Source of the DNA: Polytrichum commune
Lineage: Eukaryota > Streptophyta > Polytrichopsida > Polytrichales > Polytrichaceae
Direction: 5' to 3'
Length of the DNA stretch: 64,000 bases
Assembly (NCBI GenBank): GCA_950295325.1
Contig: OX485807.1
Location: 45,620,796-45,684,795 of the forward strand
Shown here: in pieces, positions 1 to 59,007 of the stretch
Position numbering within the stretch: position 1 is the first letter of the stretch
How the letters are laid out: every line of letters begins with the position of its first letter
The notes under the pieces: model-generated
Seen by the model: the letters and a program-made list of their open reading frames with translations, nothing else
Databases searched by the model: none
What the model was told of the DNA's origin: nothing
Translations under genes and position numbers: made by a program

Positions 1-533
1 CAACTCGACGGACAGATCATCCCGCATAGGTTTACGGGCGGGAGCAACCTGCAACGCGTGAATGCAAGAACACACGTGTTAGTTAAGGGAGGAAGACCCA
101 AACGTGTCACACGTTCATTTTTTAAGTGCGGGATGATTGTAATGTGCGGTTAACCATGTTTGGGGGGGGGGGGGTTCACCTTGTCACCGGGGGCGTTCCC
201 ATCGGAGTTGGCGAGGAGGGGCAAGGCGTCCCGCAAAGGAATAGGAAGGGTTCCACTCTTCGTTGGCCGAGCGTCCATCCGCAGCCGCCGTTGAGGTGTA
301 ATATGGCCGCCGGGTCGAGAGGGGGACGTCCGGACGCATTTGCGATTTATGCCCTTGAGCGGCGACGGGGACGCAGATCGCCGGAAGATTTGCTTGGGTG
401 GGGGGCTATCGACGACGCCGGCGTCAATAGGCTCCTTGGAGTAGTCAATGGTTGACGCTGCGTCGTAAACAGTCTCGTAGAAGAAGCTCCCCAAATTTGA
501 CTCGCTCACGATGTCAATCAAGGGCTCCAAACG
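1..533 (-). CDS. Unit A 'gene 3': start-less terminal exons downstream of gene 1 (partial)
   Basis: There are two exons: 533-180 (118 codons, phase 0 after a CTCCAG acceptor) and 48-1 (after a TTGCAG acceptor, continuing off the window). The first exon has no ATG; its first codons read Arg-Leu-Glu-Pro. It shares a block with the unit B copy, around DAAS-x-x-DYS and GVV-D/N-SPPP, then A-x-SPSPL and R-x-SPSR. Both copies have a donor directly after a lysine codon, and the second exon opens Val-Ala-Pro in both. The protein is proline-, serine- and arginine-rich with no recognised domain. Missing start codons and phase-0 entry in all three units suggest splicing onto an upstream exon of gene 1, most simply exon 3 with exon 4 skipped. 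A separate gene with an unseen first exon is the alternative. A poly-G/poly-C tract lies in the intron just after the donor, near 162-173. Confidence 0.5.
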
Positions 534-670
534 CTGGAGCCAAAATTAAAACAAAACAAAACCCAAGGGAGAAGGGTTTGATAGAGCGCGTGAAAATCAA
601 GATACATATGAAGCATATATTACACAAAGTGGGCAGACACATACACACACATACAAACACACATAGTGCC

Positions 671-1483
671 TCAAATGAGCTTGTTGAATTTCGCGTGTGA
701 GAACAACTCTCTGTACAAATGGTCTCGTGGATCCAAGTATCTCTCGCCTATCGGATTGTTCCTAACAAAATTGTTTACGGGTAGCCCGCTACCCCAGCGC
801 GCCTGGAGGTATTTACTAAGGTCTAACAAAAATCGGTCCCGGACCTTCTCGACCGTCCACGTAGGGCAAACTATGAGGTTGGCCGTCGGGTTCAACATGT
901 TCTTTGCGGCGTTGTCGTCCACCATGAGCGTGTTCTCGCGGGTGGGGCGGACATCGTAGGGGACGCCTATCAAGGACGGACGTTGGTCCCAAAAAATGGG
1001 CTTCAAGACCTTGAGATATTGGGGGGAAGCGGGGTTGTTTGGTTTTTTGACGACTTTGCCGTCTGGTGTGTACAATATTCTACAGGCTTCTTGTGCTAGG
1101 ACCATGCAGGGGGGCTCGATGCCCTTGAAGATGAACTCCACGACGGCATTGGTGTTCTCGGCCTTCATGGAGCTCCACACGACCACCCACCATCGTTGTT
1201 GGGCGATCTGGAGGAAGGTCCGAAGCCACGGGCGGAGGTGAACTAGTTTGCTCTTTATGAACGTGGGCGGCCCGTCGTAATTAGCGTCCTCGGGCTTGCA
1301 AAAGGGCACCGTGGGGGTCCTAGGGCAATGAACGCATTGGACGAGGACCCCGTTCAGGTCTAACACCAGGAATCGTTTCTTCGGCAGCGGGGGCGGGGCG
1401 GGTAAAACCGGGGGTGCCGCCGCGCTGCCCTCTCCGCTCCTTGGAGAAGAGCGTCGGGGAGCCGCTACGCTATGCTCCGAGCC
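671..1483 (-). CDS. Gene 1A exon 4: FCP1/NIF-type HAD phosphatase-like domain
   Basis: This exon has 270 codons plus TGA and begins after a TCCGCAG acceptor in phase 0. About 35 Pro/Ser-rich residues come first. Then comes the HAD nucleophile motif DLNGVL, a VVWSSMKAENT block (motif II region) and LMVDDNAAK (motif III/IV). It ends on a conserved AKFNKLI. The layout matches SCP/FCP1-like phosphatases, which dephosphorylate Ser/Thr in targets such as the RNA polymerase II tail. The usual second Asp of DxD is Asn, as in units B and C, so activity is uncertain. In motif III the usual SP is NA in this copy only. It is translated as the last part of gene 1, after exon 3. Confidence 0.75.
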   Translation of the reverse strand, partial: GSEHSVAAPRRSSPRSGEGSAAAPPVLPAPPPLPKKRFLVLDLNGVLVQCVHCPRTPTVPFCKPEDANYDGPPTFIKSKLVHLRPWLRTFLQIAQQRWWVVVWSSMKAENTNAVVEFIFKGIEPPCMVLAQEACRILYTPDGKVVKKPNNPASPQYLKVLKPIFWDQRPSLIGVPYDVRPTRENTLMVDDNAAKNMLNPTANLIVCPTWTVEKVRDRFLLDLSKYLQARWGSGLPVNNFVRNNPIGERYLDPRDHLYRELFSHAKFNKLI

Positions 1484-1943
1484 CTGCGGATACGAGCGAG
1501 AGAAAACGGGGGCGACTTATGTCATGCTATGTCCAAACGAAGCATTAAGGAAACGAGCGTTCTCAGTGCAAACACAAAAGCATTTGATTCATTTTGGAGG
1601 GGGTGCAACAAGGGATACAAGGGATACAAGAGCATACAAAATACATTCAAACACAATATACAAGTATATAGGAGTCAAAAATGGTGATTATATTATATAC
1701 AATGCTCTATGTACATCTTGATTGGGGGAGCCGCGTTGAACGATGCGTTCAAACTAGCCTACTTCTACATCTAGAAAAAATTGAAGAGACGGGCCGCCGT
1801 GATGAAGACTTCGTCGCAAAGCCGGGGGTAGGTGGACGAACGAATGGTCGCTGGGGGTGACGAAGGGCGCGAGTGCCGGAGGGGGGCCTAAGTTCGTCCT
1901 AGCTAAGGGACACGACCAAGGCAAGAAGTCAAAGACCCAGGAA

Positions 1944-1965
1944 GTTTGGGTCGACCGACCCAAAC
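1944..1965. promoter_or_regulatory. Palindrome A in gene 1A intron 3
   Basis: One perfect copy of half-site GTTTGGGTCG, spacer AC, and the inverse half-site. It lies in the intron 1986-1484, about 20 bp inside the donor end. The rest of this 503-bp intron shows nothing notable. Confidence 0.85.
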
Positions 1966-1986
1966 TGAGTGGGGTCAGTGCATTAC

Positions 1987-3465
1987 CTCGCCTTGGTCGT
2001 GCCTTGACGACGTTGATGCCTGCATCGCGTGCGCTGCCCCACCTCTGTCACCGCCGTCTCCGACGACGACGTCAGCCGCAACCTGCTCCTGCAAAGGCTG
2101 AATGTCAGGCCTTTGTCCCAACCCAACCTCCGCATGCGCATCATGCATTGGTTCATCGACTGGGTTAGGAGTAGAGGTATCACCAGGCCCTTGCGGGCCT
2201 TCAACATCTAGCATAGGCTCGTCGACCGGGGTCTGATGGGGGACGGGGTTTGGGTCGGCCGACCCAAACCCTGCTGCTTGGCGAGGGTCGCTCTGCGACG
2301 CTGCAACGTCGGCACTGTTTGGGTCGGACGACCCAAACATGTGGGGGTCGTCCCGCTGGTGGTGTGGGGGCAAGAGGATGGGAGGCCGGAGCGGCGGGGG
2401 TGCCAATGAGCTGGACGCTCCGGGGACGCGCCAAAGGTTTGGGTCATCCACTTGCTGCACAGGCACGTAAGGACGGGCGTGCGGCTGCAGCAAATCCGCG
2501 AAGCTGAAGGAATGCTCCAACGCCGGCCGCGGGCGGATATCCTGTGGAGGGAAGCCTGCGGGCAAGTGAGGGAATGAACTCGGGGGAGCCATCACCAATC
2601 CCTGCGCCAGCATGCCCTGGATCACTTGCGTGATGAGGTCCGCTTGGGACGAAGTTTGGGACATCGCCCTTTGCCGCTCCTGCTCCAACAGGAGAGCCCT
2701 CAACTCCACGACTTCGTTGCGGACCGAGGGTTCCTCGGCAGCAGCCCTCTGCAGTCGCACACGTTGCTCCTCGTCTCGGAGCATTTTTGCGTTTGCCTCC
2801 TCCACGGTGAGGACCTCCGGTTTCACCCTCACATTCCCGGCGAACGCTCTGGGGGAGGCAGGATCAGACCTCAGCTTCTTGGCGAGTTCCATGTCGTCCT
2901 CGTCCTCGGAGCTTATTGCGATCGTCTCCTCCACCGCATAGTCCCCGTACAGCTTCTTCCCCTTCATCCTTCTACGCTCCCTGAAGGTGGCCGTCGCGTC
3001 CCTCGAGTACATATCCTTGGCGTCGTCCACCGTCAACGCGGGCACCAGCCTGCTCTGCGGCGTGGCAGCCCGCATGGCCTTCTTCCGCTGAGGGGCCTCG
3101 GATTCTTGAGTGAATCCTGTTGCCCCTTCCTCCACCTCCCCCTCCACTTTCTCTGCTTCCTCCTCCGCCTCCTCCTCGTTTTCCTCCCCCTCCTCCCCAA
3201 CCCTGCCACCTGCTCCCATAGACGGATTGCCCGGATGCAACCCGATGAGCGGCTCTGGCAATTGAACGGGGGCCCGCATGGCGAATTCACCCGGGTTGAT
3301 TCGCCTCGCAATATCCAAAGGATTCTCGCCCCCCTCGACGATCTCTTCGACGTAGGATCCGGGTATCCAGTCGAGGATGTCCATTCTCTTGGCCAGCGCC
3401 TTTTGGGTCCTGTAGAATTGAACATCGGCATCCTCTACATAGGAGTAGATGTTCAACCCAGACAT
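1987..3465 (-). CDS. Gene 1A exon 3: acidic, SIM-like and coiled-coil region
   Basis: This exon has 493 codons, phase 0 at both ends (acceptor TGTGCAG, donor GAG|GTAATG). It opens MSGLNIYSYVEDAD, matching the start of exon 3 in unit B. An acidic Glu tract follows, then a basic stretch and a motif ETIAISSEDEDD that resembles a SUMO-interacting motif. Next is RVKPEVLTVEEANAK, which contains a SUMO-acceptor-like V-K-x-E and aligns with RVKEEALSVAELNAK in unit B. A Glu/Arg-rich coiled coil and a long Pro/Gln/Asp-rich tail complete it. Two palindromes are translated in the tail. It is probably a flexible linker and interaction platform between the ParB-like part and the phosphatase-like part. No enzyme domain is visible. 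Confidence 0.75.
2248..2338. repeat. Two palindromes A inside coding exon 3
   Basis: Perfect sites occur at 2248-2269 (spacer GC) and 2317-2338 (spacer GA), inside the open frame of gene 1A exon 3. A decayed half-site follows at about 2435. They add residues without a stop in the reading frame. Exon 3 also carries a site in units B and C. Confidence 0.85.
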
Positions 3466-3548
3466 CTGCACAATCAAAATCAATACTATTAGTAACACCA
3501 AATGAACATATAATGGAAAATGACTTCCAAACAAAATAAGAATAGTTA

Positions 3549-3606
3549 GTTTGGGTCGCTCGACCCAAACTATGCATGGCCCTAGTTTGGGTCGCTCGAC
3601 CCAAAC
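3549..3606. repeat. Two palindromes A in gene 1A intron 2
   Basis: Perfect sites at 3549-3570 and 3585-3606, both with spacer CT, sit in the 175-bp intron 3640-3466. Starts are 36 bp apart. Confidence 0.85.
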
Positions 3607-3640
3607 CGAACGTATAGGGACTTCTGGGTTTTCTGCTTAC

Positions 3641-4972
3641 CATGGCTGCAAAAATCGGTTTGGACCCCCCGAAAACGTTGAAGATGCAGTCCCCTCTCTT
3701 CGTGAGGGTCCTCATCATCCGCAGGTAGAACTCCATGCGCAGCTCATCCGCGGGGTAGTTGGCGTACTTCGCCTCGTCATATAAGCTCCTGCTGGTACCC
3801 AACCCTTCTTGGACTTGGAAGAGCTTTTCCATCCTGGCTATGGGATGGTTTGGCACCTTAAGCAGCTCAGCTTTGTACACGAAGTACAAGCACAGCACGT
3901 TGACGATCTTCGTCTTCTTGTCTTTCAGCGTGCTGTACGCCCCCTCCGCCGGTGCAGCAACGTAGTGAGATTTCGAGACAGCATACTCCGGCTGCAATTT
4001 GCGCACGATCTCGTAAACCTGCTCTGCCCTTCTGTCCTCGACAATCCAGAGCCAGACGTCGACCTCCCTGAATTTGGGGCTGGCGTAGTCCACGAACTTC
4101 GACAAGAAAGGATCGTAAAAAGGGGTGCTCATAGTCCCCTCGAATGAGGCTCCAGGGATGTTCCTGAAGTCTATCATTCCGAAGGGGAAGCGGTCCCCGG
4201 CTCTAGTCCTGATCGCCTTCCTTGACTCAGAACCCGGCCAACCCTGGATCCTGAGAGGTTCGACAGTGACCATGTTGAATTGCGCATCGCCTTCGAAACT
4301 GACGATCTTCTTCTCCTTTATGAAGTTGGAGAAGGCCCGCACTGAGTGTTCGGGAAGCGCCCGGTTCCTCCCCCCCTTCACGAGCTTGGATCTGAGGAAA
4401 TCGTATCCCGCCTCCCTCATGAGGGCCGCCATGGACGCACTGGTAAACTTATATTTGGCTTTGAAGGCCCTCCAGTGCGCCTCGTCGACCTCTCCGTCCA
4501 CGATGAGCTTCTTCTCTGGCACAAGCTTGTGCAGCTCCTGGACGATGGTCGTCTTCTTCTTCCTGTTCTCCGTCCATTCCTTCATTGTGTAGCATGAAGG
4601 GACGAAGATCTTGGGTTTGGTGAAGACGATCTTAGGGTGGACCCAGCATCTCTTCGCCGTCGTCTCCACGTGTAGGATGTGGGACGCCGCTTTTTCCATC
4701 TCTGTCTCGGAGAGACCTTGAAGCGCTCTGAAAAACTCCCTCACCAGAGGCTTCATTTGCTTGAAGCGCGAAGTCTGGTTGAAGAGCATGCCGGTGTCGG
4801 GGTCGATGAGGTCACCCGTCTCGTGTTTTTCAAAAACACTCTTCCATCTTGCCCATACGAAATCGGACGCTGTGATCAAATAGATTTCTCCTCTCAGCTC
4901 ATTATATTTTTTCTGCTTATGGCTAGCATTGTCGATCGAGGAGAATTTATTGATCATTTGATATTTGAAATC
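3641..4972 (-). CDS. Gene 1A exon 2: conserved region with faint amino-methyltransferase resemblance
   Basis: This exon has 444 codons, phase 0 at both ends. The first half is charged (INKFSSIDN, W-x-x-W-x-x-VFEKHETGDLIDPDTG, MKEWTENRKKK) and aligns with unit B along its length. The second half has GMIDFRNIPGA, then VWLWIVED, a hydrophobic strand near NVLCLYFVY, and ends ELRMEFY...RGDCIFNVFGGSK...AAM. The end resembles motif I of N4/N6 amino-methyltransferases (a KP-E-L helix, then D-x-F-x-G-S-G), with IDFR where DPPY would sit. The catalytic Asp and Gly are replaced, so I infer at most an inactive relative. ParB-methyltransferase fusions are common in bacterial mobile DNA, which makes this reading attractive but unproven. 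The phase-0 donor follows the final ATG codon, as in unit B. Confidence 0.7.
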
Positions 4973-5034
4973 CTGCACAGGAAGACATTAGCACATGTTA
5001 GACAACACATAATGGAAAAACAAATGCAACAGCA

Positions 5035-5113
5035 GTTTGGGTCGACCGACCCAAACTATGAACCTGGCGATGACAACAAAACAATGTAGGAGTTTGGGTC
5101 GATCGACCCAAAC
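5035..5113. repeat. Two palindromes A in gene 1A intron 1
   Basis: Perfect sites at 5035-5056 (spacer AC) and 5092-5113 (spacer AT) lie in the 149-bp intron 5121-4973. The second lies just inside the 5' splice site. Confidence 0.85.
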
Positions 5114-5121
5114 ATACTCAC

Positions 5122-6447
5122 CTCCCATTTGGGGTTCTTGTCTTTAGCATTCTCCCTTTCCTTGGGAGGCCTTCCATAAAACTCCCACACCTCCCTCGAG
5201 GCCATGATGTTTCTGATCCACGATGCCTGATAGGCCCTCTTTTTGTTCCCCATGTTGAAGAACCTAGAGATGTCGCTGAGGACCGTCTCGTTGTCCGACC
5301 AAACCACCAAAGCCTTCCAAACTTTTAGCTTCTCCTTCTGGTTGTTCGGGTCGTCCCACTCGGTCATCAGCTGGATTTTTTTCGAGGCCTCCACACTGTG
5401 CTGCCCGTCAATCAGCCAGAAGTCTCCTTTAGAGATTGCCGGCCACATCTCAGGCGTCGGCATTCTTTTCAGCCCTTGTGGCATGACAACAATTGTCTGC
5501 CTGTCGTCCTTGAACTGCCCGCCCAAGATTTGAGCGACCATCCAGTCGACGTAGGCGTCCTCCTTGGCTCGGACGCACTTCTCTGGTGGCGCAAGGTGGC
5601 ACTGCGCAATGTTGACCTCGAATTTGAAGTCCCTGCCCATGAAGAAGCAGTGCAGGCATTTTGTCTCGAAGTTGTTGTTTATTTTTTGTATTTCGCCTGC
5701 ATCCACCTCTTGGCCAGGCTTCGGCATCCGGAGCTCCGGGGAAACAGGCTCGTCAATCATCCCCGATGACTCTCTTCCCCTCTTGGAAGGGGTCGTCTGA
5801 CGGCTTCCTGATGGCGTTGGCGTCTCGCTGTCAGCCGGCGTTGTTGTAGTGCTCGTCCGTCTCGAGTCTGCAGGGACCGCCCGCGGTTTCCTCACAGTTT
5901 GTGGTCTTGAGGACCCTGCGCCTTCTTCCATCGTTGCCTTCCGCCTCACAGGCTGCTGCGTCTTGGGTTTGCTTTGCAGCGCCTTGTTGAGAACCGTGAT
6001 AGCCTGTTTTAACTTTGTGAACCTACTCGCAACCTTCGTGTTCGTTACACTGCCATCTATGAATATGGCCTCCGGTTTTATGGTTTCAGGGTCGACGCAA
6101 GTCTCCTTGGCGTACAAGGGGTCGAAGGGCTCGGAGAACTGGTGCATGAACATGTGGACGTTCTGCACGGCGGAGTTCTCCAGTATGACATCTACGTAGT
6201 CCCCGAGAGACTGGACGGACGCAACCTCCCATCCCGTCAGCGTTGCCCAGGTGTGATGCTCGTGGGTCCCCACCTTCACCACGAATAGCAGCTTGAACAT
6301 GGATGCCTTCACCACCTGAACGGACCATGCCAGAACGACGCCATCTTTTGGGACGTAAGAATCGTCCTGTGGAGTTTCATACTCCTGCCAAAGGTGGTCT
6401 GGCGCGAGCATGAACCACCTTTCACCTGGTCTCTTTTTAGGGGCCAT
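5122..6447 (-). CDS. Gene 1A exon 1: ParB/sulfiredoxin-like domain protein, N-terminal part
   Basis: This exon has 442 codons. I chose the ATG at 6447 because a TTGCAG acceptor sits directly before it, as in unit B. Residues 1-150 are a conserved domain with no match I know; it shares SYVPKD with NYVPKE in unit B. A basic Ser/Thr-rich linker follows with SRQTTPSKRGRE, shared with unit B as SRQSTPSKRSRD, probably a nuclear localisation signal. The last 190 residues carry cysteine pairs, DRQTIVVMPQG and the motif DFWLIDGQHSVEAS. The last aligns with the ParB/Srx G-x-H/R-x-x-A box. ParB proteins bind palindromic parS sites and hydrolyse CTP, and this unit is full of palindromes. CTPase activity cannot be judged by eye. 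A sulfiredoxin-like role is less likely given the context. Confidence 0.75.
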
Positions 6448-6612
6448 CTGCAATCCAAGAAATCGAAACTGTGAGTTTCGGTCAATCAACCCAAAGTATT
6501 GCAATGTGCATTTAACATTTGGAGGATTCACCCAAACATTTACTTAATTTTCAAAGTCGTTTTAAAAGATCTTTTAGATTTTAAAGTGTGGTTTAGGTGG
6601 TCACCCTGTAAT

Positions 6613-7570
6613 GTTTGGGTCGAGCGACCCAAACATGATGAGGCTGCAAATTTAGGTAGCTTAACACATTCATTTCAGACTGCAATGTTTGGGTCGAACG
6701 ACCCAAACAATTACTTAATTTTGGAAGTTCTTTTATATTTTACAGTGTGGTTTAGTTCTTCTCCCTGTAATGTTTGGGTCGAGCGACCCAAATATGTTAG
6801 GCTGCAAATTTAGGTAGCTCAACCCATTCATTTCAGACTGCAATGTTTGGGTCGAACGACCCAAACAATTACTTAATTTTCAAAGTTCTTTTATATTTTA
6901 CAATGTGGTTTAGTTCTTCTCCATGTAATGTTTGGGTCGAGCGACCCAAATATGTTAGGCTGCAAATTTAGGTAGCTCAACCCATTCATTTCAGACTGCA
7001 ATGTTTGGGTCGAACGACCCAAACAATTACTTAATTTTCAAAGTTCTTTTTTATTTTACAATGTGCTTTAGTTCTTCTCCGTGTAATGTTTGGGTCGACC
7101 GACCGAAACATGTTAGGCTGCAAATTTAGGTAGCTCAACCCAATCATTTCAGACTGCAATGTTTGGGTCGAACGACCCAAACATTCACTTAATTTTCAAA
7201 GTTCTTTTATATTTTACAATGTGGTTTAGTTCTTCTCCCTGTAATGTTTGGGTCGAGCGACCCAAACATGTTAGGCTGCAAATTTAGGTACCTCAACCCA
7301 GTCATTTCAGTCTGCAATGTTTGGGTCGAACGACCCAAACATTTACTTAATTTTTAAAGTTCTTTTTTATTTTACAATGTGGTTTAGTTCTTCTCCCTGT
7401 AATGTTTGGGTCGAGCGACCCAAACATAATGAGGCTCCAATGTTTGGGTCGCTCGACCCAAACAAGAGGCTGCAATGTTTGGGTCGAACGACCCAAACAT
7501 TTAGTTCATTTTAGGCGGCAATTCAAATATTTATTATATTTTAATATGAGTTTGGGTCGTCTCCCCAAAC
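6613..7570. repeat. 158-bp tandem array carrying 13 palindromes A in the gene 1A leader
   Basis: Two interleaved series share a 158-bp period. Sites with spacer AG start at 6613, 6772, 6930, 7246 and 7404; the 7088 copy has spacer AC and one half-site mismatch. Sites with spacer AA start at 6687, 6845, 7003, 7161, 7319 and 7477. An extra site with spacer CT is at 7442 and a decayed one at 7550. The inter-site sequence is also repeated, so the array grew by tandem duplication of a two-site unit. It lies wholly in the predicted leader intron 7691-6448, between the first exon and the start codon of gene 1A. Confidence 0.9.
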
Positions 7571-7691
7571 TACTGTGTTTCCAGATGCATGTTTAATGCT
7601 TGGGCAACATATACAATGCTTATGCATTGTATATGTAACATGAACCTAAAGGGAATGATGCAAATTGTGTGCACTGATGCAAATTGCTTAC

Positions 7692-8300
7692 CTTGTCTTT
7701 CAAACTCTTGAAAGCTGCTCTCACAATCTGCTTCTTACAACCGGACTCAGAAACTCTGTTGTGGCACTAAAGAACAACTCTCACAAAGACCTCAGAAACA
7801 CAATGAATCTCTCAAGCACCCTAAAACTTTCTCACAAACCCCCTGATTCTTGCAAACTCAGGCCTAATTTGAAAGACCTCTACCTTTCTATCACACTCGA
7901 CCGTGCTCACTTCTACTCAACCTAAAATCACTCCATGCATGAATTTTACAAAACAAGTAAGGAGTTCAACACAATAACCCGCTCCGAACTCACTCAAAGC
8001 TAACACTCTGGACCAAGAAGAGAGAATAAGAAGAGGAAAACAATAACAAGAGGAATAGAATGAGAGAAGAGGAGGAGAAGCATCAGAGAGGAGGAGAGGA
8101 ATGAAGGAGAAAGAAGAATGAAGGGAAGCGGCGCGACCAAGACAAAAGCAAAAGGTGCAAGAGGAAGCGCTTGGCGCGGCGCTATGGAAAGCGGCGGCGG
8201 CGTTTCCAAGAGCGGCGCTTGGCGCGGAGGAAGAGAGGAAGAAAAAGAGAGAAAGAAAAAAGAGGAGGGGAGAGAAGGAGAGAGCGGAAGGGGTCACCCT
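7692..8300 (-). other. Probable untranslated leader exon of gene 1A
   Basis: The minus strand is strongly pyrimidine-rich from about 8300 to 8010. It then continues to a good splice donor, AAGACAAG|GTAAGCAA, at 7692/7691. Joining it to the acceptor before the ATG at 6447 removes the palindrome array. Units B and C have a similar pyrimidine-rich stretch 1.3-1.6 kb upstream of gene 1. Open frames here are low-complexity and not conserved, so I do not call a protein. Confidence 0.45.
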
Positions 8301-8353
8301 AAACCCTCGAATCCGGGCCATTAGATTGCGCCGGGCCCATCAACGGCTCAGAA

Positions 8354-8418
8354 GCCTCGCGGGCCAACACCTTGCCAGGTGTCGACACCTCCTTGGTTTA
8401 GGTGGTTGCCCGCGAGGC
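8354..8418. repeat. Inverted repeat with nested 14-bp palindrome upstream of gene 1A
   Basis: Arms 8354-8371 and 8401-8418 are near-perfect inverses. The loop contains AGGTGTCGACACCT (8377-8390), a perfect palindrome unrelated to the family A site. It sits in a GC-rich island just upstream of the predicted leader exon, so it may be a promoter element of gene 1A. Confidence 0.55.
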
Positions 8419-9073
8419 TTGTGGTGTTGACACCTGCCACCCTAGGGAGATTGCCTTCTTGGTTGTCCTTGCCCCTAGGTGCGGGACATAGGAGGGCCGG
8501 CGCCTCTCTTGGCCGCCCGGCCCTGGCCTTCTAACCCGCTATTCATTAGCGGCAATTCAATACCAGTCAAAAACCTACGTGGACTAAGGTATTCCACAAA
8601 ATTAACACCATCACCAACTCATATTTTAATGGTGTTCAATTGAATGATCACCCGTTGGAATTGATAACATCGTAGAATGTAGCCATTATCGTTTTGGTGT
8701 ATGAATAATGTAATTTATGGAATCATATGAGAGTGTTACAAAGTCTAAGAGGAGTAAGTCATAATTATATTGCAATCCACAAAGGCAATTACACGGTGCA
8801 ATAATATAAATATGGTAACCATTCACATGGTTAACAGTTTAGGATTATGTATTGTAATTTATATGATGGTTGTTGGTAGAGGACAATGCTCTAGTCTATA
8901 ATGGATACCCTAACAAGTAGCATTAGAGTGAACATTAATATATGTACTTAGAAGTTCACATTTGAAGTACATGGGAGAAACAAATGATTACAAATGTATC
9001 TACTGCAACCCCATGGAGTTCACATATCATATGAAGTCATTTAAACATTCAGTTTGATGTTTGATGATGCCTG

Positions 9074-9104
9074 AACCCTAAACCCTAAACCTTAAACCTT
9101 AAAC
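9074..9104 (-). repeat. Interstitial telomere-like tract (CCCTAAA type)
   Basis: About four units of CCCTAAA with some decay to CCTTAAA. The plant-type telomere motif is away from any visible chromosome end. Confidence 0.7.
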
Positions 9105-50306: not shown

Positions 50307-50381
50307 GTGAGTGTCCATTACATAAATCCCAGTTTTTCTGTTAGTGTGAACGCGGTTATCTGAAAGTGGATATTTGAAGTG

Positions 50382-50863
50382 CCCACGGGTGAACACCCGT
50401 GGGCTTTTGCACCCACAAGGTGGAGAGGCCCACGGGTGAACACCCGTGGGCCTCTCCCCCCATCTGGTTGAATGTGCCCACGGGTGTTCACCCGTGGGCT
50501 TTTGCACCCACAAGGTGGAGAGGCCCACGGGTGAACACCCGTGGGCAGTGGTGATTCTTCACAAGGTCCCTAACATGTCCTTGGTCACATGTCGACATCT
50601 TCATTTTTTTCTGTTCTTTTTTCCTAATTTTGTACCAACTTGAGGGAGACTTAACTTGTATAGATATTACCGGTTTCGGGACGGGTTGAGATTTTTTTTG
50701 CCTTTCAATTCAAGATTTTTGGACGTGGACGAGCTAAAACTTTGTGAAAAATCAGCCCTCCCGTGGGCCTCTCCCCTCATCTGGTTGAAAGTGCCCACGG
50801 GTGTTCACCCGTGGGCCTTTGCCCTCACCTGGTTAGGAGTGCCCACGGGTGTTCACCCGTGAG
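50382..50863. repeat. Six palindromes C in the gene 1C leader intron
   Basis: Starts are 50382 (spacer AA), 50429 (AA), 50477 (TT), 50524 (AA), 50794 (TT) and 50842 (TT). The first four are 47-48 bp apart and flanked by repeated sequence in alternating orientation. A solo half-site is near 50758. Confidence 0.9.
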
Positions 50864-51042
50864 CCTTTGCACTCACCTGGGTGGGAGATTTTGTTTGATA
50901 AATGTCTTTCTGATTTTCTATGTAGACAAATTCGGTGTGTCTCTGTAAGCATTTGAAGGTTTTAGACATAAACATGTGATAGACAGTTGGTGTTTCATTC
51001 AGGTACATAGAGGTGTCGAAGTGTTCTCTCATTTGAATTGAG

Positions 51043-52477
51043 ATGGCAAGAACTAAGCAAACAGCCCGTAAAGGTATAACCACAATACCTATGTGCACGT
51101 CAATGTTATATGAGTTATAGAATCCGTGATAATATTGGGCTATGCTGAGTACTTACATGTGCATTGTCTTCTGCAGTATCGGGAGGTGTGGGCAGACGGG
51201 TGAATTACGATGTTGAAGTTTTGGGCCCAGATTTGCAATGGTTCATGCAGTATAGTGGTTTCGGAGAGACAACGGTGCTCTCGCTTTACACGAGGACTGG
51301 GCCCAATTCCACATGGAGAAAGTACATGAAGGCAAAACATGTACTGGACATTCAAACGGATGGGAGCCGGGTATTGATAATGTGCAAGTCGCCTGAACGG
51401 AAGAAGGACTTCAAGGTTGCAGCACTCGTGGAGACTTTCTCATATGCGGATGTGAATGAAGAGCTCAACAATGAGGGAGAGAACATCCGCTTATTGAACG
51501 GTGATTTCCTCACCTATTGTATACTATATTGCGAGACCAATGTGCACACGAAGTCCGTGGAGGAGAGGTCAGTAATGATCGAGCAGGACTACAAATCTGC
51601 TCTAGCACGAGTGAAGGTTATAGTTGAGGAGGCAAAGGCGGCAAGGTTGGAAGCATTTTTGAAGAAGAAGGAAATCCGCGATGGCAAGAGGAAGGATCTT
51701 GCTGATGTACGTGCCACCTCGTCTAGGAAGAAGACGAGACCCGATGAAGGACAACCACTGATTGTCGAAGACACTGACGGCCAGGATGTTGTCTCCAAGA
51801 GAGGCAAGAAGAAAACACCTGAGGATAGTCCATTTCTTGAACTCGAGAAGATTCCCAAGCGATCAATGCATGGGCCTCCAGACAAATCGGTTGGAGACAG
51901 GTTGATGGATATGGAGTTGTTCAAGAACAAGTACCAAAGGGTGTGGATATTCGGTGAAGGCGTGAATGGCTATGTCAATATTGACAATATAGAGCGGGGA
52001 GATGCAGGGTATAATTGCCGACCCATATCCGAGGCGCATTTGAAGGAGATCAAGACATGGTTATTCAACTATGCCTTCATTCCGAAGATTCATCCCAACT
52101 TCTTGACAATCGTTCCTTCGGATAGGCGAACTAAACCATTCAATTTTGAGGAGGTGAAGGACAAATCATTCCACGTGGTAAATGGACAGCACACGTTAGC
52201 AGCCTGTCTCGAGTATGTGAATGACCCTAGCAGCACAGATGAGGTGAAGAGGTTTTTCTCGAAATGGCCTTGTAATGTGGTCTGGGCCCCTGAAGGTGAT
52301 GACGACCCTCTGTTCCACCTCTCTGGTGTTCTGAACCTGGATAGTGAGTACAGGAAGCACTTTCCGTCATTTACGGAGTGCATTCAGCACGCTAAGAAGA
52401 CCTGGATTAGGCGAGGAAGACCTGACCGAACTGTACGCGAGAAGGCCAGCAACACGGAAGCTTTTAAGAAGTGGAAG
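51043..52477 (+). CDS. Gene 1C exons 1a and 1b: ParB-like part with a histone H3-tail-like N-terminus
   Basis: Exon 1a (51043-51073) encodes MARTKQTARK and one further base. Exon 1b (51177-52477) follows in phase 1 and continues VSGGVGRRVNYDVEV. Together they make 444 codons, equal in length to exon 1 of units A and B, and exon 1b has no suitable ATG of its own. After Met removal the first nine residues equal histone H3 residues 1-9, including K4 and K9, and the GG of H3 12-13 is kept. The ParB-like part is clear: NCRPISEAHLKEI, then HPNFLTIVPSD and FHVVNGQHTLAACLEYV at about 52168-52215. A basic linker (KKKEIRDGKRKD, SSRKKTRPDE) lies between. It should bind DNA in the nucleus, and the C palindrome is its natural candidate. 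The sequence is the most diverged of the three gene 1 copies. Confidence 0.72.
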
Positions 52478-52522
52478 GTATTTTTCAAACCTGTGACTTT
52501 TGAATTTCTCATTTCTGTGACT

Positions 52523-52544
52523 CCCACGGGTGTTCACCCGTGGG
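52523..52544. repeat. Palindrome C in gene 1C intron 1
   Basis: Perfect copy, spacer TT, in intron 52478-52627. Confidence 0.88.
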
Positions 52545-52627
52545 CGACTATCATGTTGTTGGTGATTGCTGGAAATACATGGAGGTTTTTTTCATAGAGA
52601 TTGATACATTGCCGGTGTTTGATATAG

Positions 52628-53890
52628 GCATTTATTACGTGCGTCATGTGGACGTTCCGCGTGGAGAAGGAGACCAACCTGATCATGGAGCACGTCTTGC
52701 CTGTATTGGGCGATGACATATGGAGGAAGTGGGAGCGGATATTCAAGGATTACGAGAGTGGTGACTATGTAGACCCGAAGACCGGAGCTCTTATGAAAGA
52801 GACAAAGGGGTTTAAGTCGAAGAAGGTGGTCAAGAACGACCTGAAACAATTTCGGGGCTTGACAGAGATGGAGCTCGACATGGCAGCGAATCAAATCCTC
52901 ACCACCAGAGATGGAGAGCAGCACCCTCGACATACCTTGAAGACTGTGCGCGATTGGGCGATGAACAGGAAAAAGAAGAATGAAACTTATATCGCGATGG
53001 CACAGTGTCTAGACCCGACTCCATTGTACATTGTCCACATCGATCAGAAAGAGACCATTGATCGTGATTGTTGGAGAGTATGGAAGTATGCGAATAAGTT
53101 TGGTAAACTCCAGCGAGAACGACTTGTAGACTTGCTTGGAGCGGAGTACCTTCTTGGCGCTATGAACCCCACAAGGAAGAGAGTACCTATTCCGGACCGG
53201 TTTAAAGAAGGAGTGAGGAACATTTTAGGTACACATAACACCGAGGTTACACCCGAGCATGTCGTGTTGTCTATTGACAACAACTACAAGATCAGTGGTG
53301 GGACAGTGCTTGCACCAGTCCTGCACGCGTACATGGACACAAGGTTTCTCCCCGGAGTCCAGGCGGGAAAAGACACTGGGGGGCGTGTGAAGGAGTGTAT
53401 GGATTCCACTCTGCAAGGTCTTCGTCGTGATTTCCCAGGCATTTTAAACTCCCCCCAATTGTGGACTGTGATTTCAGAATATCCGGATCGGCATTTCATT
53501 CACAATGTGCTGAAGGCGCACCTTCCGAGCAACGCCAGATTTTGTGACGCCTTATACCGTGGCACTAAAGAGGAGAAAATTGCATCTCGCGATTGCTTCT
53601 TCGAATCAAATGCTCTTCGGGTTACAAACTGCATTTTTCCGAATAGGGGCGAATCAAGTTCGGAGGTGGCTGTGCGGCTCTGTGGAGGCCGGAAGATGTT
53701 GGACGTCCATGACCCGGGGCGATATAAACGTTATTCAGTGAAAAGGGCGTATTCCAATGAGGAGGCCAAGTGTTTATTCAAGGGGGAGTTGAGGATGCAG
53801 ACCTACATAGATATCATCAAGCCTTCATGTCTTGAGGGGTCTTCTTTTCTCAATATTTGTGGAGGCAATAAGGCGCACATAGTGGCACAT
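52628..53890 (+). CDS. Gene 1C exon 2: region matching exon 2 of units A and B
   Basis: This exon has 421 codons, phase 0. I take the acceptor GATATAG because the next residues, Ala-Phe, match the start of the same exon in unit B. It shares SGDYVDPKTG, FRGLTEMEL, RDWAMNRKKK, a degenerate MDTRFLPG where units A and B have IDFR-x-IPG, and the closing ELRMQTYIDI...NICGGNKAHI. Similarity to a methyltransferase is weaker here than in units A and B, so a catalytic role is unlikely. The donor follows a His codon, as in the family plan. Confidence 0.68.
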
Positions 53891-53995
53891 GTAAGTAATG
53901 AGCATCTTTTCCCCTAAGTGGTTCTTGAATTTCTGAATATTATCGTTGGTTTGGATGGTGTTTTGGATAACCTAACCATAAACCAGGTTGGGAGG

Positions 53996-54017
53996 CCCAC
54001 GGGTGAACACCCGTGGG
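53996..54017. repeat. Palindrome C in gene 1C intron 2
   Basis: Perfect copy, spacer AA, in intron 53891-54189. Confidence 0.88.
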
Positions 54018-54189
54018 CCTAGACATCCACCTGCTTTATATCCACCTGGTTGATAGCCACCTTCTCGATAGCTTTCCTGACAATTAGTTGGTAGACAAAT
54101 AGTTGGGACTATTGGTTTAATTCTATTCGCTTTTGGATGTAGACTAATTTGATTGAGAAGTTATTTATCTCATGCCTTGGTTTTTGCAG

Positions 54190-56403
54190 GCATTGGGTAT
54201 GAAGGTGTTGAATATTGTGCCGGCAGAGATGCTAGAGGTGGCGAAGACGAAGATGATTGCCGCAGTTGACTGGAGCATACAAAGGTGGAATGAGGAAGGA
54301 AAATTCGCTGCCCAGGATTTGGAAGAGGAAGAAGGGCGTATCGATGTGGATTCCATCATTGAGCGCGAGATTGGAAGAAAGCGTGCGAATGACATAAATG
54401 AAGAGGACGTAGAAGAGGAGGAGGAGGAGGAGGAGGAAGAGGTGGAGGAGGAAGATGACCCAGTTGTTGTCCTAGGGGAGTCTGCGGAGGAAGAGGAAGT
54501 GGCCGACGAAGAGGAAGAGGAAGAGGAAGAGGAAGAGGAAGAGGAAGAAGAGGTGGTCATGGACGACGCACTGGCGGAGGCCATGGCTGAGGTCATGGCA
54601 GAGGTGGAGGAGGAGGCCTTCAATTACAAGGCGTCAGCCATGGCGGAGGCCTCTTTGGAGGCCATGTCCCCGGAGCAGGTTCCCCACGGGTGTTCACCCG
54701 TGGGGGAGGGGGAGGGGGAGGGTGAGGAGGAGCGGCAAGAGGATGCTTCCAACTTAGAGGAAGTTGGTCGTCCACAAGCCGAGCACAGTGTCCATCACCC
54801 TGTGGGATCTTTCTCGTCTGGGATCCCATCTACACCCGGCCGCGGGTTTGCACAGTTTGACACATCTAGACGAAGTCAAGAACAACTAGATGTTCAACCT
54901 ATGGAAGAATATGAGGAGGATGAGCGTCCGCAGTCAGCTAATCCTGCTGCAAGGTCTGCATCGAAACCGACTGCAAGAAAGAAAATGAAAGCTCCTCGAA
55001 GGGGAAGGTCATCTCTACGTCCTGCTAGAGTTGGAGATCACTCGCGGTCTTCGGAGGCAACGGAGCATTCTGGTCTTTATCGCGAGGTTGAATCTGGCCA
55101 AGCGGATGTTCCGCGGGATGCAATCATGTCTGAAGCTGTGCATGTTGAAGGGACAAACACAGATTTGAACGTCAGCTCACCTGTTGAGGACGTTGCCGCT
55201 GCCGTTCTCGAGGTGCTAGGACATGGGCGATCAAATCGTGATTCACCTGGTGTTGTGGTTGCAGAAGAGCCTACTGTAGCGGCACCATCCAATGAAGCAG
55301 AGGAGGTTATTCGAACCGAAGTCATATGCTTGGATAGTGATGACGATGTGCCCGAAAGATGCGTAGAACTAGACGTGAGGGTGAAGGTGAGAGATCGAGT
55401 TCCACATCGGATTCGGGGGACGTTTGCGGACTACATGACGGATGATTCCGAGGATGAGGATTATGGGAAGCCTGGGTACAACAGAGTGAAACTCAACTTT
55501 GTTGATGACCCTCACCCGGTGTTTGCTGGGAGACCTGACATGGGCAAGGAATCGGATGGGAAGGACAAGGTGCATTTTGCCCCATTTGTGGACAAATACT
55601 TGGTAGATGTGCCCGAGAACGTGCGATTGAATCTTGCGCATTTGTACACGTCGTACGATTATCACAAGATGTTCGCTTATCTCTCCACACCAGCGTTTTG
55701 TGAAGCAGTGAAGGTGAAACATATTCTTCATGCCGCTGCATTAAAGAAAATGAGAAAGAGATGGACAGCGTTCGAAGCTCCCAAACATCGTGATGAACGA
55801 GGTCAATTCGCGGGGTCCTCGGCCGCTCAAGCCGGCAGTGTTGTGGACTCTACGTTGGAGATCATTGACATTACTGGAGTGCCAGAGTCTCCAAGGAGGG
55901 AAGTCGATGTTGCAGTTGCGGAGTCCTCAAGCCCTCATGTCGAACGTGTTGCTGAGGGTCAACCGGCATCGTCCGAAATGGTAATACATACTCCCTTTCC
56001 AATGCTATATTGTGTTTGGCGGTGGAAGCAAACTCGTCAAGATTTCTAAAAGTGTCTTTGCAACAGGTGTTGGTTGCGGCAGAACGGGATGTCATTCCAC
56101 CGAGTTCTCATGACGACCCTGCACATGGTGGGGATCCCCCCCTAAGCCAAGCTCAAGGTATCATATATAGTGTTATTTGAATGCAATTGGTCCCACGGGT
56201 GAACACCCGTGGGACCACCTGTTTATACTTTTCAATTTCCATACAAATTGTTATCTCTCGAGTAATATTTATATAAGGGACTTTTGATATTGTGCCCACG
56301 GGTGTTCACCCGTGGGAGATTATGGGTTTGAGCGTGTGGATCTCATAAGTCATGTGTGCATGTGGTCACAGGTCATACAGCCACTGCCGGAATACCACCT
56401 TCG
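54190..56403 (+). CDS. Gene 1C exon 3 and two small exons: acidic, SIM-like region
   Basis: The exons are 54190-55980 (597 codons), 56067-56157 (91 bases) and 56372-56403 (32 bases), which join in frame and return to phase 0. The main exon has a long Glu tract (54410-54560), a translated palindrome, a basic RKKMKAPRRGR block, and TEVICLDSDDDVPER (about 55317-55361), a strong SUMO-interacting-like motif. A conserved-looking globular stretch follows, around FADYMTDDSEDEDYG and VRLNLAHLYTSYDYHK. Units A and B have no equivalent of the two small exons. The 3' end of the main exon is set by the donor after Met (ATG|GTAATA). Codon repeats in the Glu tract suggest slippage-driven length change. Confidence 0.65.
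54683..54704. repeat. Palindrome C inside coding exon 3
   Basis: Perfect copy, spacer TT, translated as part of PHGCSPVGEG. The frame stays open. Confidence 0.88.
56192..56316. repeat. Two palindromes C in gene 1C intron 3b
   Basis: Sites at 56192-56213 (spacer AA) and 56295-56316 (spacer TT), both perfect, lie in intron 56158-56371. Confidence 0.88.
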
Positions 56404-56576
56404 GTACGATATTTTCCTCGATCTCGCAAAACTAATCCATAAATGTGGAGGCATTCTTTTATCTTGCATACTCATGTGTACCCAACGTGTTGTTTCATTC
56501 GATAAAAATCATGTAGAATATACTTTTTCCTTAGATAGAAATTCTTTACAATGACTTTCAATTTTGTCATCGCCAG

Positions 56577-57359
56577 ATCCTCACCTCTCCAACCACTGTT
56601 GTCCATCGGAGAGAGAAGATATGGTTAGTGCTGGATGTGAACGGGATCCTGGTGAGGTCAACAAAGTGCGACAATGTCAACACCAGGAAGACTCTTGAAT
56701 CACAACATAGCCCTCAGATAACTGGGGAGTTGGTTCCACTCTTTCTCCCATATAGTGCCCTCATACCTAGGAGAGGACTGGGACGCTTTCTGCGTTTTGT
56801 TCTCTCAAACTTCCATGTTGTCATCTGGTCGTCGAAGCTTATGAAGAATCTTCAGCCAATTGTCCGGCACTTCTTCAATGGTTGTAGACATCCAGAGTAT
56901 GTGTTTGGGCAAGAATTGTGTCACACTCTGAAGGATGAGAGAGGACAAGTTCTTCCTAGTCCTATGAATGCTGATTCAAGCTTCTTCATGAAAGACCTGT
57001 GCGCATTTTTTGAGTGGAGCCGGACGCATCCAGTGCCGCATACGAAGCAACCCAGTCATAGGACTACATTACTTGTTGATGACTCCCCTTACAAATGCAT
57101 CCCAAACCCTCCTGGGAGCTACATTAACCCTGTACCATTTATGTCAAACCAAAGCTTGGATACTCTGCATAGTTACCTGCAAAGGCTCTTGAGTTCTCAA
57201 CAGTATGTGCCAGATTTTGTGGGGAGCAACCCTTATCCATCAGGACAGGGACCCTTCAATCTAGAGCTGCCAAGTTCTCTGATTTATAAGCAATCATTAG
57301 TTAGACATAAAATACTGACTTCTGCCCGTATGGTTCCAGAGGCTCAGATGTTAATGTAG
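56577..57359 (+). CDS. Gene 1C exon 4: FCP1/NIF-type HAD phosphatase-like domain
   Basis: This exon has 260 codons plus TAG, phase 0 after ATCGCCAG. It contains WLVLDVNGILVRS (motif I, again D-x-N), RRGLGRFLRF, HVVIWSSKLMKNLQP (motif II region), VFGQELC and LLVDDSPYKCIPNPPGSY (motif III/IV). It then diverges and lacks the AKFNKLI ending of units A and B. In FCP1/SCP enzymes these blocks form the phosphoryl-transfer site. Full conservation of the block order in three diverged copies argues the domain is under selection. Confidence 0.75.
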   Translation: MLTSPTTVVHRREKIWLVLDVNGILVRSTKCDNVNTRKTLESQHSPQITGELVPLFLPYSALIPRRGLGRFLRFVLSNFHVVIWSSKLMKNLQPIVRHFFNGCRHPEYVFGQELCHTLKDERGQVLPSPMNADSSFFMKDLCAFFEWSRTHPVPHTKQPSHRTTLLVDDSPYKCIPNPPGSYINPVPFMSNQSLDTLHSYLQRLLSSQQYVPDFVGSNPYPSGQGPFNLELPSSLIYKQSLVRHKILTSARMVPEAQMLM

Positions 57360-57601
57360 ATTCCCTATTGGGGCCGCCTATAGTGCACATTTGCACTATC
57401 GGTACATTGTATTTGAAATGAGTGGATCTGAAACTTTGTTGCCTTTCAACTTCATTTGAAACTTGTTTTGGTTTTGTGGATTTTCTTCATGCAAACATGT
57501 CATGGTCATGAATGTATCTCACTGGGAGTCTACTACTTTGCAACACTGCGGTGTTAGAGAATACCCGACTATTTCCGACCACAGTGAATGTCTGGCATTG
57601 T

Positions 57602-57623
57602 CCCACGGGTGTTCACCCGTGGC
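57602..57623. repeat. Palindrome C between gene 1C and its terminal exons
   Basis: One mismatch at the last base, spacer TT. It lies between the gene 1C stop and the acceptor at 57843. Confidence 0.85.
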
Positions 57624-57843
57624 AATGTGGTAGTTGATTCAATGAATGTATCAGGCCACTTGGACAATGTTAGTTGTGTTTTTGGGAATTATGGTTGTCA
57701 TAGCGAATTTTAATATGTAGGACTTAGTCGGCTATAATTCATATGTTTTGAACATGTTCATCTTTACTAAAGGGCAACGGACGGGCTCCTCTTGCACATA
57801 ATGTCCTTCTTCCATGGACTCTTATGTTATTGTATCCTAACAG

Positions 57844-58428
57844 CATTCCCCATTCCAAACGCGACCTAAGAACTATATTGCCAGTCCACCATGTCGACAA
57901 CGTCCTCCGGATGCTAACGCCGACTTCGCCGAAGTGACATCTCCATGCCCTAAGGTAATTCATTTTCCACATGAATCCCAATTTTTTTAGTTGTGTTTCA
58001 TCCCAGGGATTCTAATATCAATTTGTCGTTTGTTGTGGTAGACACATATGCTCCAAACACACGATGTTGCGCTCGCGGTTGCGGTGGCTGTTCCGGTCGC
58101 GGTTGAGGAGGCTGTTCCGGTCGATGTTGCGGGTCCGGTCACACGCGCTCGGGTGAAGAGACACCTTTCTCTCCAAACCACTCACCCCAATGAGCCCACG
58201 GGCTCGGGAAATAGTTCTGGATGTTGGAGGTGTAGTTCACCCAATACCACCTCATCCATGTCTGATTACGTGGCTGCAAGGGTGAAACAACTTCGAGAAG
58301 CTACAGTTTTGATGGAGGAGAAAAAACGGCTTGAAGAAGTCAAGCGCAAGCAATGTACTATAGCTCAAAGACAACCTCATGACAAGATGTTGAAAATGAT
58401 TAAGGATTCATACTCCTCTTGTAGATAG
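57844..58428 (+). CDS. Unit C 'gene 3': start-less terminal exons after gene 1
   Basis: Exon a is 57844-57954 (37 codons, acceptor CCTAACAG, phase 0, donor after Pro-Lys). Exon b is 58042-58428 (128 codons plus TAG). Exon a has no ATG. Exon b has an early ATG (its third codon) that could serve on its own. The product is Ala/Val-Pro rich (repeats of VAV-x-VPV), then basic with TRARVKRHLS. It ends in a Lys/Glu helix, MEEKKRLEEVKRKQ. Sequence identity to units A and B is low, but position, phase and the Lys-ended donor are the same. It is best read as an alternative 3' end of gene 1C, with lower certainty than unit B. Confidence 0.45.
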
Positions 58429-58452
58429 CCGGACCTTTATGGTGATAGATTT

Positions 58453-59007
58453 TCCACGGGTGTTCACCCGTGGATACAACAATTCATATACTTTGTTCAC
58501 ATTTTTTGTGCCCACTGTGGCATCTATGATTCAATCAAATGATTTTTTGACCCTCATTTGTGTAGTCGGATATGATATGTAGACCTTCCTTCATGTGTTA
58601 TGGATCTTGCATCGTGTGTTGCATGGCGTTGATTGGTCACGGGCGTTCACTCGTGGTTAGATGTATTTGTATTCTCTGAGTAGTATTAAGTGCCCATGAT
58701 AGCTTTTATGATTAGGCCCATTATATTTGCATACAGTTGTTGACATGCGCATGGTTGTTCCTTAGTGGTATCGACTTATGTTGTATTATGGATATACTAG
58801 GCTCATCTGTTGCGGGGTGTTGGTTGGTCACGAGTGAACACCCATGGTGACAACTGGGCTAAGTTTTTATGTGGGCTAGAATAAGCATTATTTTAGCTTA
58901 TATATATACACCAATGTGCATGAAATAGTGCCCTAGTCTATGTTGATGACCTTCCTCTTGTTCTAAACCTTGTCAATGATGGCAATTCACGGATATTTAC
59001 TCGTGAA
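58453..59007. repeat. Series of increasingly decayed palindromes C
   Basis: Sites at 58453-58474 (outer bases changed), 58635-58656, 58827-58848 and 58986-59007 match less and less well. An isolated half-site is near 59347. Many changes are CG to TG or CA. This may be the outer edge of unit C. Confidence 0.65.

What the first reader, a model, noticed from the sequence alone, without database searches (positions are those of the whole stretch)
1..59007. Three copies of one gene module, each with its own private 22-bp palindrome
Units A, B and C share gene order, intron positions and divergent layout. Each is filled with a different palindrome: half-site GTTTGGGTCG, TTTACGAACG or CCCACGGGTG. 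About 33, 26 and 25 sites respectively are confined to their own unit, and I saw none in another unit. A shared protein family with different private sites suggests co-evolution of a DNA-binding protein with its target. I know of no described plant element with this design. The nearest ideas are ParB/parS and VANDAL/VANC anti-silencing.
Basis: partly seen in the sequence, partly recalled or inferred. Interest (0 to 1): 0.95.

Follow-up and report, generated by a model that had tools for sequence, protein, structure and literature searches.

The report
Transposons with private ParB-like address palindromes
Three large plant jumping genes lie side by side, each studded with its own 22-letter mirror-image DNA tag and each encoding a large protein predicted to resemble a bacterial tag-reader, which suggests that each family marks and controls its own copies by a private address.

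Summary
Units A, B and C are complete DNA transposons with terminal inverted repeats and 4-bp target duplications (A starts about 700 bp before the window). Each has a DUF7869 gene (presumed transposase), a divergent multi-exon gene 1 (1359-1484 aa) and a NIF-type phosphatase gene. Each carries its own 10-2-10 palindrome: 32, 25 and 24 sites, none in another unit. Genome-wide there are 9231, 2909 and 644 exact sites. Between diverged A copies, sites stay intact while most internal non-coding DNA is 54-68% identical. B-palindrome clusters are B-type elements (5 of 5; gene 1 seen in 4), and 20 of 20 sampled B-clade genes have a B site in intron 1, though these copies are kin.

Privacy is not absolute: palindrome A also sits in a different (SWIM/MULE-like) transposon (4 of 7 clusters), and four isolated C loci lie in a relative of it with another palindrome. 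Both encode a putative ParB-like protein.

A gene-1 homologue models as ParB/Noc-like, without the GERR motif. Best reading: gene 1 reads its family's palindrome and protects or activates its own copies, a non-homologous counterpart of VANDAL/VANC. Binding and effect are inferred. Unit C's gene 1 starts with an exact histone H3 tail.

The parts
1..15363 (-). Element A (starts about 702 bp before the window; about 16.07 kb; TSD TAGA). Strand given is that of gene 1.
   Evidence: Copy alignments and TIR/TSD
15347..15363 (-). Right terminal inverted repeat of A, AACACTATATTCGTTAA (read inwards)
671..1516 (-). A: NIF/FCP1-like phosphatase ORF (stop to stop)
   Evidence: PF03031 E 8.4e-15
1975..3465 (-). 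A gene 1 exon 3 (acidic, low complexity)
3641..4972 (-). A gene 1 exon 2
5122..6447 (-). A gene 1 exon 1, with the DGQHS motif of the ParB-like domain; gene 1 total 1382 aa
6613..7498 (.). A palindrome array upstream of gene 1 (13 sites, 158-bp period)
10669..11551 (.). A palindrome array upstream of the DUF7869 gene (12 sites, 78-bp period)
1944..5113 (.). Seven A sites in introns 1 and 2, exon 3 and just past exon 3 (1944, 2248, 2317, 3549, 3585, 5035, 5092)
11735..14833 (+). A: DUF7869 gene (presumed transposase), three ORFs, exons partly resolved
   Evidence: PF25273 E 3.3e-42 on the middle ORF
18570..33872 (+). Element B, 15.3 kb, TSD TCCT; TIRs 18570-18586 and 33856-33872. Strand given is that of gene 1.
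18966..22148 (-). B: DUF7869 gene (presumed transposase)
   Evidence: PF25273 E 4.3e-40
22262..23112 (.). B palindromes upstream of the DUF7869 gene (7 sites)
26137..26623 (.). B palindromes upstream of and in the 5' region of gene 1 (7 sites)
26655..27950 (+). B gene 1 exon 1 (DGKHS motif)
28074..29399 (+). B gene 1 exon 2; introns on either side hold 2 sites each
29588..31045 (+). B gene 1 exon 3; gene 1 total 1359 aa
31060..31516 (.). B palindromes between gene 1 and the phosphatase (5 sites)
31615..32388 (+). B: NIF/FCP1-like phosphatase ORF
   Evidence: 45% identity to A's
33996..59087 (+). Element C, 25.1 kb, 23-bp perfect TIR ATGGGGATATTAACTAAAATGAG, TSD TACC. Strand given is that of gene 1.
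34490..37484 (-). C: DUF7869 gene (two ORFs)
   Evidence: PF25273 E 2.4e-46 on 35406-37484
37484..38291 (.). C palindromes upstream of the DUF7869 gene (6 sites)
50382..50863 (.). C palindromes upstream of gene 1 (6 sites)
51043..51073 (+). C gene 1 predicted exon 0: MARTKQTARK, histone H3 residues 1-9
51177..52477 (+). C gene 1 exon 1 (NGQHT motif)
52628..53890 (+). C gene 1 exon 2
54190..56049 (+). C gene 1 exon 3; gene 1 total 1484 aa
56535..57359 (+). C: NIF/FCP1-like phosphatase ORF
   Evidence: 30% and 38% identity to A's and B's
57602..58848 (.). C palindromes near the right end (4 sites); further sites at 34203, 34439, 35322, 52523, 53996, 54683, 56192, 56295

Best explanation
Each unit is a separate DNA transposon of one superfamily (DUF7869 gene as presumed transposase, 4-bp target duplication); B at least moved recently. 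Gene 1 encodes a large chromatin protein with a ParB-fold domain. It recognises its own family's 22-bp palindrome as a two-half-site target, loads at the many sites in promoters, introns and spacers of every family copy, and keeps those copies open or expressed, so the element counters host silencing without touching other DNA. The palindrome is the family's address, and reader and address change together. Shown: transposon structure, site conservation, the B gene-palindrome association, a ParB-like fold in a model of a homologue. Inferred: binding, loading or spreading, anti-silencing.
For: TIRs with 4-bp TSDs for A, B, C and one more A copy. Sites sit in promoter-side arrays, introns and spacers; 5 of 81 lie in coding sequence, all in low-complexity exon 3. 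Site columns are 450 of 488 and 459 of 487 identical between diverged A copies, where internal non-coding segments are 54-68% identical (intron 1: 74-76%), and arrays were rebuilt with other periods around the same palindrome. dN/dS about 0.2 for exon 3, phosphatase and first DUF7869 exon. B association 5 of 5 clusters and 20 of 20 genes. 95 B exon-2 copies scored (of 1171 candidates), 83-100% identical, two other loci at 100%. ParB/Noc/KorB fold match. A second transposon class shows the same design with another putative ParB-like gene. VANC precedent, PMC5735166.
Against: No binding, methylation or expression data. Copies within a family are related by descent, so 20 of 20 is not 20 independent cases; independent contrasts are the few clades A, B, C and D, E. 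Identity at site columns is favoured by the aligner, and only 487-488 of 640 site letters aligned. The ParB signature GERR (recalled) reads GQHS, GKHS or GQHT, so CTP use is doubtful. The model is of a homologue, mean pLDDT 50 (blocks of 60-87 over residues 261-370), from 8 rows. No Pfam family reaches its cut-off in the gene-1 exons scanned. Profile comparison of gene 1 with the second class's ParB-like exon is not significant. Palindromes A and C also occur in that other class. A and C genes were not tested genome-wide: the search did not complete.
Confidence: 0.5

Rival explanations
1. Gene 1 is a transposition accessory protein, like TnpA of En/Spm: it binds the palindromes to bring ends together or to regulate transposition, with no role against silencing.
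For: The element encodes a presumed transposase and a separate presumed DNA-binding protein, divergently arranged. Unit C has some sites within 1 kb of its ends.
Against: The dense arrays are central (promoters, introns), and sites within about 1 kb of the ends are few and mostly degenerate.
Confidence: 0.15
2. Gene 1 is a KorB-like autoregulator: it represses or activates only the element's own promoters, setting copy number.
For: The largest arrays lie upstream of both divergent genes; KorB is among the structure matches.
Against: Sites also lie in introns, in exon 3 and in spacers far from promoters, more than simple promoter control needs.
Confidence: 0.2
3. A true partition or tethering system: ParB-like clamps load on parS-like palindromes and segregate an extrachromosomal form or tether copies.
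For: ParB/Noc fold match; many palindromic candidate loading sites.
Against: No ParA-type ATPase among the window ORFs scanned against Pfam (10, 2; not all ORFs were scanned); GERR motif absent; copies are chromosomal with TSDs.
Confidence: 0.08
4. The palindromes are sites for a host factor or selfish satellites, and gene 1 is unrelated to them.
For: The same palindromes occur in other transposons; family copies share sites by descent anyway.
Against: The palindrome differs between sister families in one host while going with the B gene clade, and sites outlast divergence of their surroundings.
Confidence: 0.07

Closest known systems
VANDAL transposons and VANC anti-silencing proteins of Arabidopsis (PMC5735166)
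   Same: Related elements carry related large proteins and different short DNA motifs, arrayed in tandem repeats in introns and upstream regions; motif and protein are proposed to evolve together.
   Different: Different presumed transposase (DUF7869, 4-bp TSD), 22-bp palindromes instead of nine-base motifs, ParB-like fold in a model, phosphatase gene; homology to VANC was not compared directly; anti-silencing not shown here.
ParB, Noc and KorB with their palindromic sites
   Same: Predicted fold of residues 250-560 in a gene-1 homologue; palindromic sites; many sites.
   Different: Inside a plant transposon; GERR replaced by GQHS/GKHS/GQHT; no ParA found among the ORFs scanned; sites 22 bp with a free 2-nt centre.
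Sola DNA transposons (recalled)
   Same: 4-bp target duplications, TIR, autonomous element.
   Different: Transposase relationship not tested; no Sola sequence was at hand.
En/Spm (CACTA) TnpA and TnpD (recalled)
   Same: Presumed transposase plus separate presumed DNA-binding protein with repeated sites.
   Different: 4-bp TSD rather than 3-bp; termini AACACTATA or ATGGGGATA; sites mostly central.

Membership tests
VANDAL/VANC | Family-specific motif arrays in non-coding parts of the element | tested here: met
VANDAL/VANC | MULE-type transposase with 8-11-bp TSD (recalled) | tested here: not met
   DUF7869 and 4-bp TSDs
VANDAL/VANC | Homology of gene 1 to VANC proteins | tested here: inconclusive
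   No Pfam family above cut-off in the gene-1 exons scanned (all of A and C, B exon 3, homologues P0001 and P0002); no VANC sequence compared directly
[quoted passage not shown]
   No methylation data
ParB/parS | ParB/Srx-fold N-terminal domain | tested here: met
ParB/parS | Following helical parS-binding domain | tested here: inconclusive
   ParB alignments run on to about residue 555-560, but this part of the model is of low confidence
ParB/parS | GERR-type CTP-binding motif (recalled) | tested here: not met
   GQHS, GKHS, GQHT at that place
ParB/parS | ParA ATPase partner | tested here: inconclusive
   None in the window ORFs scanned (10, 2); other ORFs and the central parts were not scanned
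ParB/parS | CTP-dependent clamp loading at a palindromic site | not testable with these tools
   Needs biochemistry
En/Spm (CACTA) | CACTA termini with 3-bp TSD (recalled) | tested here: not met
   AACACTATA or ATGGGGATA termini, 4-bp TSD
Sola | 4-bp TSD (recalled) | tested here: met
   TAGA, TCCT, TACC, ATAA
Sola | Sola transposase homology | not tested
   No reference sequence at hand

The most novel reading that the evidence does not exclude
Plant transposons of two unrelated transposase classes each carry a ParB-fold protein with a private palindromic address. The protein loads at its sites and spreads over every copy of its family as a self-marking coat that keeps host silencing off, in one family aided by an N-terminal histone H3 tail decoy; other elements steal protection by acquiring foreign addresses.
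Probability: 0.25. Interest if true: 0.93.

Novelty: new variant of a known kind. Interest (0 to 1): 0.78.

Why it matters
If right, sequence-specific self-recognition by transposons has arisen independently of VANC, on a ParB-type scaffold, with a set of at least five different palindromes in one genome. That would allow a direct test of how a DNA-binding protein and its site switch specificity together, and would supply orthogonal locus-marking tools. A histone H3 tail at the start of a transposon protein would be an unusual handle on how such elements deal with chromatin.

Tried and rejected
Rejected: chance (about 0.07 perfect palindromes expected, 55 found). RNA genes: no Rfam family at gathering score, no tRNA. 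Virus: no palindrome A in viral contigs and no encoded relative of P0001 there. Separate genes g1, g2, g3: they join as exons of one frame with splice signals; the first join of B was out of frame and was corrected. Pairs: exon 2 of c2110 and c1177 dropped (frame broken), phosphatase of c1177 dropped, exon 3 winA-c612 dropped, c1177 dropped for the DUF7869 exon, exon 1 winA against c2110 and c1177 not quoted (dS infinite; one stop in each of those copies); a first run used an offset wrong by one base. Region identities carry the same one-base shift. The DUF7869 AF2 model (mean pLDDT 48) was too poor in its core to test a transposase fold and was not searched. PDB sequence searches: no hit for B exon 1; the exon-1 profile gave one weak match (E 0.89, an N-methyltransferase with an IDGKH motif). 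Profile comparison of gene 1 with the second class's ParB-like exon was not significant (probability 2.5%). Papers: DUF7869 gives 0 papers; the listings show no title or abstract that describes this design; one search listed the VANC papers. Only the held PMC library was searched.
Full report
WHERE IT IS. The window is G000:C5:45620796-45684795 of an unnamed 407.8-Mb genome in 64 contigs. Contigs C1 to C7, whose lengths were printed, sum to about 406 Mb. The only named protein relative found is from the moss Physcomitrium patens (P0006, DUF7869, 44% identity over 40% of the query). A moss is likely; seven large contigs would fit Polytrichaceae (n = 7, recalled), but the species is not established.

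OBSERVATION. Perfect 10-2-10 palindromes number 29 (A), 9 (B) and 14 (C). With 1, 4 and 5 mismatches allowed there are 32, 25 and 24 sites, all in their own unit; matches in another unit's ground start at 6 mismatches. About 0.07 perfect palindromes are expected by composition; 55 were found, 2 of them AT repeats. The two central bases of perfect sites vary in A (8 kinds) and B (5 kinds) and are AA, TT or AT in C.

WHAT THE UNITS ARE. Comparison with copies on contig C1 set the ends of A at about -702 and 15363. The ends read AACACTATATTCGTTAA, with target duplication TAGA; another A copy has ATAA. B runs from 18570 to 33872 with TCCT. C runs from 33996 to 59087 with a perfect 23-bp repeat and TACC. 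All three are therefore separate insertions of complete DNA transposons with 4-bp duplications. Each encodes a DUF7869 protein, a NIF-type phosphatase (PF03031 for A; B and C by 30-45% identity) and gene 1. A and B gene 1 share 35% and 37% identity in exons 1 and 2; C shares 20-25% in the longer alignments. That DUF7869 is a transposase is presumed from its place in the element; the structure model was too poor to test it.

SITES OUTLAST THEIR SURROUNDINGS. Among A copies, c612 is 95-100% identical to the window's A by segment. c1177 and c2110 are 76-79% identical in gene-1 exons and phosphatase, 54-68% in internal non-coding segments, 74-76% in intron 1, 93-94% at the left end and, for c2110, 91% at the right end. 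Site letters are identical at 450 of 488 and 459 of 487 aligned positions, of 640 in all; the aligner favours sites, but an alignment-free scan also finds 16 perfect and 8 one-mismatch sites in c1177 and 25 and 9 in c2110. The arrays have periods 158 and 78 bp in the window copy and about 56-64 bp in the two diverged copies, built around the same palindrome. Selection on the encoded proteins is also visible: winA against c2110 gives dN/dS 0.21 (phosphatase), 0.19 (exon 3) and 0.21 (first DUF7869 exon).

GENOME-WIDE TEST. Exact palindromes: A 9231, B 2909, C 644; each reversed control 0. Only the first 100 places of each list were shown. Picking by palindrome B, the five clusters in that list are all B-type: four have exon 1 at 83-84% to B against 34-35% to A; in the fifth the sampled stretches hold fragments closest to B's DUF7869 protein (57% over 49 aa) and phosphatase (70% over 81 aa), gene 1 not seen. 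Two lone B sites (C1:2286450, 2485595) were not examined. Picking 20 of 95 scored B-clade exon-2 loci, 20 of 20 have a B site (0 or 1 mismatch) just upstream of exon 2, where intron 1 lies, and none has an A, C, D or E site at up to 4 mismatches. These copies are kin, so this shows constancy, not 20 independent cases. The seven A clusters listed on C1 are three A elements and four copies of a different element, here called D. Of the C sites on C1, two full-spaced copies were sampled at gene 1 (99.7% and 96.6% over about 1.1 kb); a third stretch gave no match and a fourth a partial match. Four isolated loci (one or two exact sites) were examined: one is shown in full to be an element filled with another palindrome, GAGGCCTCGGATCCGAGGCCTC, and the other three are close copies of that stretch (part of the output was cut). 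The other isolated C sites listed were not examined.

A SECOND TRANSPOSON CLASS WITH THE SAME DESIGN. D (L018, L020) has a SWIM-like transposase candidate (PF04434 only at E 0.076; otherwise by eye). It also has a divergent gene with the motif IWDGNHRFFAW, a palindrome CCCTGTGCGTTAACGCACAGGG, and A arrays between two exons and on the promoter side. Element E (L057, L025, L058) is its relative: transposase-side ORFs 39-52% and ParB-like exon 37% identical to D. It carries 37 matches of its own palindrome at up to 3 mismatches, 5 of which overlap a better one, and four C sites. The ParB-like exons of D and E are 34% identical and share EGNHR or DGNHR. Neither hits Pfam, and profile comparison with gene 1 exon 1 aligns only the motif, not significantly. 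The shared ParB-like character of the two classes is thus a motif-level inference.

MECHANISM AND STATUS. Shown: transposons, conserved family-specific palindromes, B association, ParB-like fold in a model of a homologue. Inferred: binding of the palindrome by gene 1, coating, and relief from silencing. The closest precedent is VANC (PMC5735166; read: first of six parts, and passages). VANC binds short motifs in tandem repeats in introns and upstream regions, and its expression removes methylation from its own family. The present elements match that logic; membership was not shown. Foreign sites in D and E could be theft of another family's reader, or shared use; the data do not decide.

HISTONE MIMIC. 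Unit C gene 1 begins, in the predicted exon 0, with MARTKQTARK; spliced on, the protein reads MARTKQTARKVSGGVGRRVN. Residues 1-9 equal histone H3 and G12, G13 and R17 also match (recalled H3 sequence). The expected number in six frames is about 5e-9. It is kept in the two further C copies that cover it, one with a synonymous change. Whether exon 0 is transcribed is unknown, and capture of a host H3 exon is possible. The genome-wide count was never obtained.

Noticed in passing
window 51043-51073, L021 387, L022 575: Predicted first exon of unit C gene 1 encodes MARTKQTARK, an exact histone H3 N-terminal tail; kept in 2 further copies, one with a synonymous change.
   Followed up: partly
window 1975-3465, 29588-31045, 54190-56049; L018 6088-6735; L058 3729-6026: Gene 1 exon 3 and the transposase-side proteins of D and E contain acidic stretches resembling SUMO-interacting motifs (AIAISSEDEDD, AIIEVSDEDEGD, VICLDSDDD, VFVLSDSEDD, VIDLSDSSSED), most with a nearby VKxE-like motif. 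Motifs by eye, recalled consensus.
   Followed up: no
L018, L020, L019, L035, L036: D element: SWIM-like transposase candidate plus divergent DGNHR protein; carries palindrome A arrays and a palindrome CCCTGTGCGTTAACGCACAGGG.
   Followed up: partly
L057, L025, L058 (C1:28011400-28032400): E element: relative of D filled with GAGGCCTCGGNNCCGAGGCCTC and holding four C-type sites, two of them beside a 280-bp repeat similar to window 17457-17734.
   Followed up: partly
L020 3274-3732: The D gene on the ParB-like side ends in an exon that looks like a DNA methyltransferase motif region (by eye, no Pfam hit).
   Followed up: no
window 33996-59087 against C1:48454084-48474947: Most intervals between palindromes in unit C are repeated to the base in another copy on C1, pointing to recent transposition of the whole 25-kb element.
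   Followed up: partly
element A copies winA and c2110: Both ends and the DUF7869 half are 86-94% identical while gene 1 and phosphatase are 76-79%: possible mosaic element.
   Followed up: no
window 18575-18615 and 24448-24488: 41-nt inverted copy (95%) of the B terminus inside B, possibly a nested small relative.
   Followed up: no
window 24088-24114, 41224-41255, 45135-45167: Short interstitial arrays of the plant telomere-type repeat GGGTTTA (or GGTTTAG).
   Followed up: no
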